Source: Mytilus galloprovincialis (Eukaryota > Mollusca > Bivalvia > Mytilida > Mytilidae). From it: a stretch of DNA of 64,000 bases. Positions 17,775-57,878 of the stretch are shown here, piece after piece. Each line of letters begins with the position of its first letter. The stretch's first letter is position 1. The stretch covers positions 84,912,916-84,976,915 of the forward strand of contig NC_134840.1 in NCBI RefSeq assembly GCF_965363235.1. The letters are read 5' to 3'. Made by a program: the position numbers and the translations under genes. The notes below the pieces were generated by a model that made no database searches, was not told the DNA's origin, and worked only from the letters and a program-made list of their open reading frames with translations.

Positions 17775-17781
17775 GTATATT

Positions 17782-17829
17782 CAGAGACATATATACACAG
17801 TTGCCAATCTCTGTGTATATATGTCTTTG
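17782..17829. mobile_element. palindromic micro-element (48 bp) with 7-bp target duplication
   Basis: The arms are 19 bp each with one mismatch, start CAGAGACATATATACACAG, and enclose a 10-nt loop. The flanks are GTATATT on the left (17775-17781) and GTATATT on the right (17830-17836), a perfect 7-bp direct repeat. It shares termini with 19598, 28520 and 57059. Confidence 0.85.
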
Positions 17830-19583: not shown

Positions 19584-19597
19584 AGTATTATTTAAGG

Positions 19598-19621
19598 CAG
19601 AGACATATACATATGTCTCTG
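19598..19621. mobile_element. palindromic micro-element (24 bp) with 7-bp target duplication
   Basis: 11-bp arms CAGAGACATAT / ATATGTCTCTG around a 2-nt centre. Flanked on both sides by TTTAAGG (19591-19597 and 19622-19628). It is the smallest member of the family seen here and lies 14 bp outside the 18034 element. Confidence 0.85.
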
Positions 19622-19628
19622 TTTAAGG

Positions 19629-22867: not shown

Positions 22868-23004
22868 TATATGGTTCGCTACTGACCCCCTACGGATCCA
22901 TAGAGGGTTAGTAAAATTCATAGGGGGTGAGGCCGGAGGCCGAGTCCCCTATGAATTTTATTCACCCTCTATGGATCCGTAGGGGGTTAGTAGTTAACCG
23001 TATA
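22868..23004. mobile_element. foldback element with ~57-bp arms
   Basis: Two arms of about 57 bp, each containing CCCCCTACGGATCCATAGAG or its complement and ATTCATAGGGG / CCCCTATGAAT, enclose a loop near GGCCGGAGGCC. The arms end in ATATGGTT and AACCGTATA. Related short inverted phrases (ACCCCATATGAAAC and CATAGGGGGTCACC) continue to about 23155, so the element may be longer on the right. Confidence 0.8.
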
Positions 23005-25118: not shown

Positions 25119-26836
25119 ATACGTCCGCAAAAATTTTAATTTTTCGTCGTATATTGCTATCACGTTGGCGTCGTCGTTGTCCGAATACTTTTAGTTTTCG
25201 CACTCTAACTTTAGTAAAAGTGAATAGAAATCTATGAAATTTTAACACAAGGTTTATAACCACAAAAGGAAGGTTGGGAGTGATTTTGGGAGTTGAGGTC
25301 TGAACAGTTTAGGAATTAAGGGCTAAAAAGGGGCCCAAGTAAGCATTATTCTTGGTTTTCGCACCATAACTTTAGTATAAGTATATAGAAATCTTTGAAA
25401 TTTATACACAAGGTTTATGACCATAAAAGGAAGGTTGGGTTTGATTTTGGGAGTTTTGGTCCCAACAGGTTTTTAGGAATAAGGGTCCCAAAGGGTCCAA
25501 AATTGAACTTTGTTTGATTTTATCAAAAATTGAATAATTGGAGTTCTTTGATATGCCGAATCTAACTGTGTACGTAGATTCTTAATTTTTGGTCCCGTTT
25601 TCCAATTGGTCTACATTAAAGTCCAAAGGGTCCAAAATTAAACTTAGTTTGATTTTAACAAAAATTGAATCCTTGGGGTTCTTTGATATGCTGAATCTAA
25701 AAATGTACTTAGATTTTTGATTATTGGCCCAGTTTCCAAGTTGGTCCAAATCGGGGTCCAAAATTAAACTTTGTTTGATTTCATCAAAAATTGAATAATT
25801 GGGGTTCTTTGATATGCCAAATCTAACTGTGTATGTAGATTCTTAATTTTTAGTCCCGTTTTCAAATTGGTCTACATTAAATACCAAAGGGTCCAAAATT
25901 AAACTAAGTTTGATTTTAATAAAAATTGAATTCTTTGGCTTTTTTGATATGCTGAATTTAATCATGTACTTAGATTTTTGATTATGGGCCCAGTTTTCAA
26001 ATTGGTTCAAATCAGGATCCAAAATTATTATATTAAGTATTGTGCAATAGCAAGAAATTTTCAATTGCACAGTATTCAGCAATAGCAAGAAATCTTCAAT
26101 TGCACAGTATTGTGCAATAGCAAAAAATGTTCAATTGCACAGTATTGTGCAATAGCAAGAAATCTTCAATTGCACAGTATTGTGCAATAGCAAATATTTT
26201 CAATTGCACAGTATTGCGCAATAGCAAGAAATATCTAATTGCACAATATTGTGCTATAGCAAGAAATTTTCAATTGATTGGAGTTATCTTTCTTTGTCCA
26301 GAATAGTAGTTGAATCAACTTAAATCATTGTTTTATACAATGCACAATGTATATTCACTTTTACTACCAACTGATAAATTAAAACACTCTTTACCATTCA
26401 GTGATAACAAGCACTTTTTGTTACATTTTAATATTTTATGATGTATTTAAATGAGTAGTTATTGTTGCAAACTCCATTAGAAATTTGAATTGAGATCAGT
26501 TTTGAAAAAAGGGAAAGGGGGATGTGAAAAAAAAATGGTGGGGGGGGGGGTTAATTTTTCTCTTTTCAGATTTCATAAATAAAAAGAAAATTTCTTTAAA
26601 CATTTTTTTGAGAGGATTAATATTCAACAGCATAGTGATTGCTCAAAGACAAAAAAATTATTTTAAGTTCATTAGACCACATTCATTCTGTGTCCAAAAC
26701 CTATGCTGTGTCAACTATTTAATCACAATCCAAATTGAGAGCTGAATCCAGCTTGAATGTTGTGTCCATACTTGCCCCAACCATTCAGGGTTCAACCTAT
26801 GCTGTCGTATAAAGCTTCGCCCTGCGGAGCATCTGG
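25119..26836 (+). mobile_element. Helentron-like repeat family F (complete, 1.7 kb)
   Basis: The head hairpin is TATACG...CGTATA around AAAAATTTTAATTTTT, followed by a GTCGTC-rich microsatellite. A tandem section follows of about 130-bp half-units built on GGGTCCAAAATTAAACTTTG (higher-order period about 260 bp), then a 35-bp minisatellite. The tail hairpin GCTTCGC-CCT-GCGGAGC ends in ATCTGG followed by TT. A head-only fragment lies at 39879. No protein encoded. Confidence 0.75.
26036..26278 (+). repeat. 35-bp minisatellite, 7 units, hairpin-forming
   Basis: GCAATAGC recurs at 26044, 26079, 26114, 26149, 26184, 26218 and 26253, a 35-bp period. Each unit junction contains TTGCACA-GTAT-TGTGCAA, a perfect 7-bp stem with a 4-nt loop. 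It lies inside family F. Confidence 0.95.
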
Positions 26837-27650: not shown

Positions 27651-28585
27651 GTCCAGTCAATCTAGCATAAATTTGACCCTAACCCGAAAGTAATTGCAAC
27701 AGAAGATTTTTAAACTTTAATCTTTAGCATTATATCCCAAATATACACAGAAAAAAGTCCCATAAAATCTAACTTGAGGAAGACCAAAAAAATCACCAAT
27801 TAAAATTCCTATGGAAATTTGCATTGAGAAGGGAGATAACTCTTGCAAAAAAGGCAGAAAATTCAATAAAAATTGATACAAAATTATAACTTTACCGCTC
27901 CTATTCATCAAAATATATTGATTCTTGATTTTTTAGCGATCTTTAGAGTATAACAAACAATTCTAAAAGTGTTTTCATTTATAATATCAAGCTATAATCT
28001 AGATTTAGTAATTATTTAGTTGACCATTTATTGAATTTTTCAACATGTCATGGTAAAGAATCTTAAATTTAATAACGATAATTAAGCATGAATTCTTCTT
28101 TTTGTGGTTTAAAATTTCTTTAGATAAGTAAGTTGCTGACAAAAATATAATATACAGATATAAACAATACCAAATTTTCACATTAATTTTTCAAAATGGT
28201 TACAAAGCTTTAAATTTGCAATTTAAGAGAAATGCACGAAAAAAATACCCATAATACTTCAGTTTTGTAAATTTCATGAGCAGAATATTATATAATTTAG
28301 TCAAATACAAACTTATAACTCATCAAAGTATCATTCTTTACATAAATTTCAAGAAAAACAACAAAAAACTCCCCTTCCAATGTTAATTTCCATAGGAAAT
28401 TAAAAATGCTGATTTTGAGTTTTCCCCAAGTTAGATTTTATGGGACATTTTTCTGTGTGTATAAAGGGCATAATGCTATAGATTAAAACTAAAACATTTT
28501 CTGTTGCAATTAGTTTGAGCAGAGACATATATACACATGTGTATATATGTCTCTGGTTTGAGGTTAAATCTTAGTTTAACTGGAC
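27651..28585. mobile_element. long-TIR element, TA-flanked (mariner-like MITE)
   Basis: The arms of about 150-190 bp start GTCCAG and end CTGGAC, each flanked by TA. Shared arm phrases include TTGCAACAGAA, ATACACAGAAAAA, CCCATAAAATCTAACTTG and CTATGGAAATT (or complements). The right arm contains a 36-bp palindromic insertion that the left arm lacks. AT-rich, no transposase frame. Confidence 0.75.
28520..28555. mobile_element. palindromic micro-element (36 bp, perfect) nested in another transposon
   Basis: A perfect palindrome with 18-bp arms beginning CAGAGACATATATACACA. The flanks are GTTTGAG at 28513-28519 and GTTTGAG at 28556-28562, a perfect 7-bp duplication. The opposite arm of the host element (near 27680) has no such insert, which gives an empty-site comparison within the same molecule. 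Confidence 0.9.
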
Positions 28586-56684: not shown

Positions 56685-57878
56685 GTAACCCAAATAAATT
56701 GGACTCTCTTTGTATTGACCTCTCTTACCTCGGAGGGGCCTAACCTCTTTATACGATTATAACATGTCGAAAATCCTGGATTTTGATTGTCACTTCTTTG
56801 ATGAGAGAGCCTATTAGTGGGCTGTTCACTGTTATTGAGATGAGGAAAAAGGGGAGGGGGAGGAGATGGTATTGAATATATTTCGTAATTTATTTCATTA
56901 GTAAGTTTATACAAAGTTAACAACCTTGTTTATTTTCTTGAAAAATGTTAGTCATATTTTAGAAAAGCTATCACATCTAGTGAACTTTTAATGGAATGTT
57001 TAGCACATATTGATAACAAAATCACCTGTTATTTGCACTGTTCCCACTGGTAACAAATCAGAGACATATAACATTAGGGTTTTTACATGTCTCTGAACCA
57101 AGTAATCTGAAAAATAATCTATAGGTAATAATTACCATGTGATGACAATAATAACATATACAATATCTGTTTAATGCTAAAACCAATTAGATTGTATATG
57201 AAAGCAGGTTTTATACAAACTGTCGGTGGTGAATCTGATCTATTTTCATGCTTGTTTCCTTATTAGGTCTATTTCCAGTAACTAAACATGAAAAATATGA
57301 TACTTCAGTAGGTATTTATGCAGGTGGATTATTTATAATTTGATGGGTTTCCATTGGAGGATCCAGAGTTACGTAGATGGCATACACCCTTTGATCAAAT
57401 GCATCCAAAAAACAAAAACCTCTGTATTTTCAAATCACATTTCAATTTTTGGTATAAAATTATCCCAAATCAGGAACTTCCTTTAGGAATTTTATCTATT
57501 TGCTGTTTAGTTATTTGGGGGACTTTGTGTTCACTCTGATATTCTTCGTAAAAAAAAATTCTAGACTTGATTATTTCATTTTGTATAGACACCTGTCAGT
57601 TGTTTATGACCTATACATATTTTTTCTTTTTTTTTTTTTTGTTAGTCTCTGATTCATTGATCTTTAGCAAACATCTGCTGAAATTCACAAACAACAATCT
57701 GCAAAATAGTACATTATAACCTAAGTTGTGATGTTACACTATTGTTTCAGGTAAGGTTGAAGGTTGGTATCTTTTAAAATGTTTAAACCAGCTGCATTTG
57801 TTTGCAACTGTCTTAAGTCAGGAACCTGATGTTCAGTGGTTGTTGTTTAGTTCATAAGTGGGTCTTGTTTCTCCTTTT
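56685..57878 (+). other. downstream intron or 3' region
   Basis: AT-rich, with one micro-palindrome at 57059. No exon supported. Confidence 0.5.
57059..57095. mobile_element. palindromic micro-element (37 bp), decayed copy
   Basis: 9-bp arms CAGAGACAT / ATGTCTCTG around a 19-nt loop. The flanks AACAAAT and AACCAAG match at 5 of 7 positions, as expected for an aged 7-bp duplication. Confidence 0.7.

What the first reader, a model, noticed from the sequence alone, without database searches (positions are those of the whole stretch)
17782..17829. A family of 24-48 bp palindromic micro-transposons with 7-bp target duplications
Four palindromes (17782, 19598, 28520, 57059) share the terminus CAGAGACAT. 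Three are flanked by perfect 7-bp direct repeats that differ from site to site (GTATATT, TTTAAGG, GTTTGAG); the fourth has a 5-of-7 match. These look like elements reduced to little more than their inverted ends, which would make them among the smallest mobile units in an animal genome. A 7-bp duplication limits the transposase class: P-like, Dada-like or an unusual hAT are candidates, by established target lengths. I know of no named family like this.
Basis: partly seen in the sequence, partly recalled or inferred. Interest (0 to 1): 0.8.

Follow-up and report, generated by a model that had tools for sequence, protein, structure and literature searches.

The report
Excision scars of P-type jumping genes
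The tiny palindromes are most likely not miniature jumping genes but repair scars left where much larger P-type transposons jumped out of a mussel-like genome, a natural record of how that transposon is cut out and how the broken DNA was rejoined.

Summary
In detail: four palindromes with terminus CAGAGACAT, three with perfect 7-bp flanking repeats. The genome holds 1990 exact-pattern copies (reversed-pattern control 1). Of the 50 listed, 35 have exact 7-bp repeats and none an exact repeat of 6 or 8-11 bp.

The micro-transposon reading fails. The genome contains full elements with these ends: 11.3 and 11.5 kb copies carrying a P-superfamily transposase between 7-bp duplications, and 1.7-6.9 kb relatives with about 31-bp inverted repeats. 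The palindromes are the two ends of such elements joined after excision.

Decisive tests. The 11-kb element has two unlike ends; short palindromes join left to right at 35 places, left-left 0, right-right 0. Two other end types pair A-A 103, B-B 218, A-B 0. Stubs stop at 18 nt (19 at the 11-kb right end), just before a GAGAT motif: 544 A-type arms reach 18 nt, 6 reach 21. Drosophila P transposase cuts 17 nt inside its 31-bp repeats (PMC7776569), and laboratory P excisions leave the same architecture (PMC2895639).

The parts
17775..17781 (.). 7-bp target duplication GTATATT, left copy
17782..17799 (+). 18-nt stub of an A-type inverted repeat (CAGAGACATATATACACA), ending at the inferred transposase cut
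17800..17829 (-). 30 nt of the same A-type inverted repeat (18-nt stub with one mismatch plus GAGATTGGCAAC): one-sided product that keeps sequence beyond the inferred cut
   Evidence: compared with L075/L076
17830..17836 (.). 7-bp target duplication GTATATT, right copy
19591..19597 (.). 7-bp target duplication TTTAAGG, left copy
19598..19621 (+). 24-bp excision scar: two short stubs of about 11-12 nt with a 1-2 nt junction
19622..19628 (.). 7-bp target duplication TTTAAGG, right copy
28513..28519 (.). 7-bp target duplication GTTTGAG, left copy
28520..28555 (+). 36-bp A-A excision scar: two complete 18-nt stubs joined end to end
   Evidence: listed genome-wide as C3:84941435-84941470
28556..28562 (.). 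7-bp target duplication GTTTGAG, right copy
57052..57058 (.). probable decayed target duplication AACAAAT, left copy (5 of 7)
57059..57095 (+). 37-bp scar with filler; left arm begins like the left end and right arm (G at position 10) like the right end of the 11-kb element
   Evidence: ends (arm assignment is my reading)
57096..57102 (.). probable decayed target duplication AACCAAG, right copy (5 of 7)

Best explanation
The palindromes are excision footprints of P-superfamily DNA transposons. An element inserts and duplicates 7 bp of target. On excision the transposase cuts at the element terminus on one strand and about 18 nt inside the inverted repeat on the other (18 nt at A, B and C-left ends, 19 nt at the C-right end, just before GAGAT), leaving 3' tails of 18-19 nt on the donor chromosome. 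End joining trims, anneals or fills in the two tails, sometimes adding filler, and seals target duplication + left stub + (filler) + right stub + target duplication. Because the inverted repeats mirror each other the scar looks palindromic. Some breaks (such as 17782-17829) were partly refilled by copying back into the element from one side before joining. Shown: genome-wide copies, 7-bp duplications, full elements with P-type transposase and the same ends, left-right pairing, stub limit. Inferred: the strand polarity of the cut, the joining pathway, and that the C-element transposase also mobilises the A and B elements.
For: 1) 1990 places in the genome, control 1. 2) 35 of the 50 listed have exact 7-bp flank repeats; 0 of 50 have an exact repeat of 6 or 8-11 bp. 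3) Two full 11.3 and 11.5 kb elements with these ends have perfect 7-bp duplications CTACTGT and ATCAAAC; the C5 copy's 905-aa ORF has the three Pfam P-transposase domains, E 1.1e-24, 1.1e-19, 1.8e-8, and matches the solved Drosophila P transposase 6p5a at E 2.5e-14. 4) Scars join left to right: LR 35 places (18 distinct sequences), LL 0, RR 0. 5) Both stubs of a scar are of one type: AA 103, BB 218, AB 0. 6) Sharp stub limit: of 100 arms in 50 scars 27 stop at 18, 2 reach 19, none 20 or more; of 100 arms in the 50 listed B-B scars 49 are 18, none longer; in 35 LR scars the right arm is 19 in 21, none longer; 544 A arms reach 18 nt and 6 reach 21. In 98 of the 100 listed ends exactly 18 nt precede GAGATTGGC, where the pattern allowed 16-21 (counted by hand). 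7) One-sided products with an exact 18-nt stub at one end, a longer element stretch at the other and a perfect 7-bp duplication: L077, L078, L079. 8) Drosophila P excision junctions have the same architecture (PMC2895639, section 7 with Table 1); the 17-nt inner cut is described in PMC7776569 (passages).
Against: 15 of 50 scars lack a perfect 7-bp repeat (3 with 6/7, 5 with 5/7, 7 with 4 or fewer); decay or deletion is assumed. Some junctions recur at different sites: one 30-bp A junction is at 20 of the places listed (hand count), three of which were fetched and have different 7-bp repeats. A mobile micro-element would also give that; end-joining preference would explain it but was not tested. 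Two arms of 100 reach 19 nt, five LR left arms do, and 6 A arms go to 21 or more. The scans demanded exact 9-nt arms or longer and gaps up to 30, so decayed or longer products are missed. No second individual or species was available, so no occupied-versus-scarred site was seen. No THAP domain was found in the transposase ORF. No cleavage was measured.
Confidence: 0.94

Rival explanations
1. Micro-transposons: 20-48 bp palindromic units that are themselves cut and pasted by a transposase.
For: 7-bp duplications that differ from site to site; identical sequences at different sites, one 30-bp sequence at 20 of the places listed.
Against: Arms of the 11-kb element pair only left with right (LR 35, LL 0, RR 0), which a self-mobile palindrome would not need. 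None of the 50 listed contains GAGATTGG, which lies inside the inverted repeats of the full elements. Interiors vary: 41 distinct sequences, strands merged, among 50 places, 23 among 50 for B-B, 18 among 35 for LR.
Confidence: 0.03
2. Ordinary MITEs that lost their interiors by deletion in place after insertion, without transposase cutting.
For: Shorter element derivatives exist (L077 257 bp, L078 375 bp, L079 78 bp).
Against: Random deletion has no reason to stop at 18-19 nt in three end types at once, just before GAGAT; the derivatives themselves carry an exact 18-nt stub at one end.
Confidence: 0.02
3. Excision footprints, but of a transposon from another superfamily (hAT, Dada or Merlin-like) that shares similar termini.
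For: CAG-type termini resemble hAT ends (recalled). No transposase was found in the one B element read whole: longest stop-to-stop ORF 99 aa; A elements were not read whole.
Against: The C elements with nearly the same 30-nt left end carry a P-type transposase and have 7-bp duplications. Long internal stubs fit the P staggered cut; flush-cutting families leave a few bases (recalled).
Confidence: 0.03

Closest known systems
Drosophila P element excision junctions (P{wa} assay, PMC2895639, section 7 with Table 1)
   Same: Target duplication, up to 17 nt of each inverted repeat, microhomology or filler, target duplication; recurrent and singleton junctions.
   Different: There made in the laboratory at one locus with 8-bp duplications; here natural genomic copies at up to about 2000 places with mostly 7-bp duplications and 18-19 nt stubs.
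P element transposase mechanism (PMC7776569, passages seen)
   Same: Homologous transposase; 31-bp inverted repeats; cut inside the inverted repeat.
   Different: 17-nt inner cut and 8-bp target there; 18 or 19 nt (inferred) and mostly 7-bp target here; no THAP domain detected here.
Galileo (P superfamily, Drosophila; PMC2775673, passages seen)
   Same: P superfamily with 7-bp target duplications.
   Different: Galileo has long, internally repetitive inverted repeats and target consensus GTAGTAC; no scar population was mentioned in the passages I saw.
Zebrafish Pdre2/THAP9 (PMC10983969, passages seen)
   Same: Animal P-type element outside insects with a transposase that excises.
   Different: 13-bp inverted repeats and 8-bp duplications; larger flanking deletions on excision in the assays described.
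Excision footprints in rice (PMC4423477, passages seen)
   Same: Genome-scale reading of transposon excision scars with deletions and filler.
   Different: 94 putative excisions found by comparing two species, over several superfamilies; no long inverted-repeat stubs in the passages I saw. Here one element group in one genome.

Membership tests
P superfamily (source element) | RNase H-like transposase with GTP-binding insertion domain (Pfam PF21787, PF21788, PF21789) | tested here: met
   All three above cut-off in the 905-aa ORF of L037; 17 loci with PF21788 in the genome, 0 of 14 control genomes
P superfamily (source element) | Sequence homology to Drosophila P transposase, acidic residues in place | tested here: met
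   6p5a, E 2.5e-14; D and E align in LLFDE, TCDGA and NQDPLE; which residues are catalytic is recalled
P superfamily (source element) | 7-8 bp target duplication | tested here: met
   11-kb elements 2 of 2 with 7 bp; 10 shorter elements: 8 with 7 bp, 2 with 8 bp
P superfamily (source element) | about 31-bp terminal inverted repeats | tested here: met
   One A and one B element aligned by eye: about 31 nt identical at both ends; the 11-kb C element has two unlike ends sharing CAGAGACAT and GAGAT
P superfamily (source element) | N-terminal THAP DNA-binding domain | tested here: inconclusive
P superfamily (source element) | 17-nt-type staggered cleavage inside the inverted repeat | not testable with these tools
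   Inferred from the 18/19-nt stub limit; needs biochemistry
Transposon excision footprint | Both target duplications retained, with remnants of both element ends between them | tested here: met
   35 of 50 exact 7-bp repeats; LR 35, LL 0, RR 0
Transposon excision footprint | Full element at the same site in another chromosome or species | not tested
   No second mussel genome was available
Micro-transposon / MITE | Both ends carry the full inverted repeat needed for mobilisation (requirement assumed from the full elements) | tested here: not met
   0 of 50 listed palindromes contain GAGATTGG; 544 A arms reach 18 nt, 6 reach 21

The most novel reading that the evidence does not exclude
P-type excision in this lineage is so often healed by end joining that scars outnumber surviving left-type element ends about elevenfold (1990 against 179 exact matches). 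The genome would be an archive of over a thousand individually readable germline break-repair events, and the transposase would place its inner cut by a ruler from the GAGAT motif (18 nt at one end, 19 at the other) rather than from the terminus.
Probability: 0.5. Interest if true: 0.75.

Novelty: new variant of a known kind. Interest (0 to 1): 0.66.

Why it matters
Excision footprints are often a few ambiguous bases, so old transposon losses are hard to see. These P-type elements leave long stubs between intact target duplications, so losses can be counted and their repair read. If general, this suggests that the long staggered cut known biochemically for Drosophila P is a property of the wider superfamily. 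It offers a natural set of germline end-joining junctions, up to about 2000, outside the usual model species, and it warns that searches for miniature transposons may pick up such scars.

Tried and rejected
Rejected: self-mobile micro-transposons, in-place deletion and chance (see rivals). A viral-contig scan for the palindrome found 13 stretches, none with a 7-bp flank repeat (flanks compared by eye): background only. Searching papers for the end sequence: none for CAGAGACATATATAC; 13 papers for CAGAGACATAT or CAGAGACATATA, judged only from titles and abstract beginnings to be unrelated. The first guess at the left end of the 11-kb element (internal CAGAGACAT at L037:1664) was wrong; its flank was shared by copies and the true end lay about 3.3 kb further out. 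Searching held loci for paralogous empty sites of 28 scars found none spanning the junction other than the scar loci themselves. One B element (L080) sits in a 35-bp satellite unit also present at window 26036-26276, where the unduplicated sequence can be read (by eye). Left ends of the transposase copies L036, L042 and L046 were not fetched; the other 12 transposase loci were not resolved into elements. The second ORF (299 aa, L037:7375-8274) had no Pfam match. Not in print: searches, 64 of the held library listed no paper that by title and abstract start describes natural P-type excision scars at genome scale or this element; a bivalve transposon survey (PMC10294476) has no 'P element', 'P superfamily' or 'footprint' in its text. 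A count of A arms reaching 19 nt was asked for and not answered.

Full report
Observation. The four palindromes and their flanks are as described. CAGAGACAT occurs 7 times in the window, all in these palindromes, with 0.36 expected. Three flanks are exact 7-bp repeats; the chance per site is about 1.15e-3. A looser scan was less striking: 2 such structures in the window, and 1 of 30 shuffles also gave 2. In the window's genome (1.385 Gb, 331 contigs, window at C3:84912916-84976915) the pattern CAGAGACAT, up to 30 bases, ATGTCTCTG has 1990 places; the pattern read backwards has 1. I fetched flanks for all 50 places that the tool listed (50 of 1990, all in the first 30 Mb of contig C1; two pairs share both scar and 7-bp flank and are probably duplications). 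35 have an exact 7-bp repeat, 3 match at 6 of 7, 5 at 5 of 7, 7 at 4 or fewer. No place has an exact repeat of 6 bp or of 8 to 11 bp; at 4 and 5 bp there are 2 and 1. The duplication is therefore real and its length is sharply 7.

Source elements. A search with Pfam PF21788, a domain of P-type transposases, found 17 loci. Fetching 10 kb around each and 5 kb of left flank for two copies gave two complete elements: C5:8628387-8639655 (11,269 bp) with target duplication CTACTGT, and C4:40711416-40722893 (11,478 bp) with ATCAAAC. Their left end is CAGAGACATATAAATACA followed by GAGATTGGCAAC; the right end, read inward, is CAGAGACATGTATACTAAA followed by GAGATGCGCGAC. The 905-aa ORF of the C5 copy has the N-terminal RNase H, GTP-binding insertion and C-terminal RNase H domains of P transposases and matches the solved Drosophila P transposase 6p5a at 2.5e-14. 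No THAP domain was detected. Three further copies (L036, L042, L046) are related over most of the fetched stretch but were not completed; the other 12 loci were not resolved into elements.

More elements. Ends of the form CAGAGACAT + 7-12 bases + GAGATTGGC occur 179 times (89 + 90), control 0. The motif is there by construction, but its distance is not: 98 of the 100 listed have exactly 18 nt before it, one 16 and one 20 (hand count). Three types dominate: A (CAGAGACATATATACACA), B (CAGAGACATATAATACAA) and C (CAGAGACATATAAATACA). Of ten A or B pairs whose two flanks I fetched (1.7 to 6.9 kb), eight have exact 7-bp duplications and two have 8-bp ones, ATGAAAAC and CCGATCCC. An eleventh, the A pair at C1:20770988-20774482, has GTTATAC on both sides (read). 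Aligned by eye, one A and one B element share about 31 nt of inverted repeat between their two ends. The one B element read whole has no stop-to-stop ORF above 99 aa, so it looks non-autonomous; no A element was read whole.

The palindromes are joined ends. Compared with these ends, the arms of the 50 listed palindromes stop at 18 nt in 27 of 100 arms, reach 19 in 2 and never 20, and none of the 50 contains GAGATTGG. In the 50 listed of 218 B-B palindromes, 49 of 100 arms are 18 nt and none longer (that pattern demands at least 16). Genome-wide, 544 A-type arms (257 forward, 287 reverse; a scar complete on both sides counts twice) reach 18 nt with a partner arm within 30 bases; 6 (5 and 1) reach 21. 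The limit lies where GAGAT begins. At the C right end GAGAT begins one base later, at position 20, and there the arms stop at 19: 21 of 35, none longer. The five 19-nt left arms in that set end in a G that the right stub can also supply.

Pairing test. The 11-kb element has unlike ends, so mobile palindromes and joined ends make different predictions. Left-right joins: 35 places (16 + 19), 18 distinct sequences, some neighbours probably being duplicates. Left-left: 0. Right-right: 0. Two left-right scars whose flanks were fetched (L062, L108) have exact 7-bp repeats TATATTC and ATTAATT. Likewise A-A 103, B-B 218, A-B 0. Each palindrome therefore most likely comes from the two ends of one element.

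One-sided products. L077, L078 and L079 carry a perfect 7-bp duplication, an exact 18-nt stub at one end and a longer piece of element at the other. L077 and L078 share the same A-end sequence to different depths before meeting the stub (by eye). Window 17782-17829 is a small case of the same kind: an 18-nt stub against 30 nt of inverted repeat. This is what interrupted copying from a template followed by end joining would leave, as described for Drosophila P breaks in PMC2895639 (passages and section 7).

Mechanism. Drosophila P transposase cuts at the terminus on one strand and 17 bp inside the 31-bp repeats on the other (PMC7776569, passages). Table 1 of PMC2895639 lists junctions of the form target duplication, up to 17 nt, microhomology or insertion, up to 17 nt, target duplication. 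The scars here have the same form with 18-19 nt and 7 bp. Among the first 50, by A/B bookkeeping, 17 are direct joins, 13 share 1-6 bases and 20 have inserted or otherwise unexplained bases; this count treats C-type scars as insertions and so overstates that class. Among the 35 left-right scars, 11 are direct, 7 share bases and 17 have extra bases. Strand polarity and pathway are inference.

Limits. One genome, exact-match patterns (so well-preserved scars are favoured and products longer than 48 bp are missed), and a non-random sample for flanks. Some junctions recur: one 30-bp A sequence is at 20 of the places listed, and the three of these that were fetched have different 7-bp repeats. I read that as end-joining preference, as in Table 1 of PMC2895639 where some junctions recur up to 14 times, but did not test it by simulation. 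The ratio of 1990 scars to 179 element ends is between two exact-match counts and is only a rough guide; how many of the 1990 are independent events is not known.

Noticed in passing
window 22878-22993: A separate long inverted repeat of about 110 bp (ends TACTGACCCCCTACGGATCCATAGAGGG / CCCTCTATGGATCCGTAGGGGGTTAGTA), probably a foldback or MITE-like element unrelated to the scars.
   Followed up: no
L081/L082 and L093/L094: Two of ten A/B elements have 8-bp rather than 7-bp target duplications, so target spacing is not rigid; no scar of the 50 showed an exact 8-bp repeat.
   Followed up: partly
L101 (C1:3198860-3199091): A scar present twice, 117 bp apart, whose two flanks are reverse complements of each other (GTAATAT / ATATTAC) instead of direct repeats.
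   Followed up: no
L037:7375-8274 (minus strand): The 11-kb P-type element carries a second 299-aa ORF in the opposite direction with no Pfam match, nearly unchanged in L035.
   Followed up: partly
window 26036-26276 and L080: A 35-bp satellite unit in the window is the same sequence into which the B element L080 inserted, so the window shows that element's kind of empty target (by eye).
   Followed up: partly
L037:1664 and L035:1606: Both 11-kb elements carry an internal CAGAGACAT that looks like an end but is shared sequence; possibly a relic of a nested insertion.
   Followed up: partly
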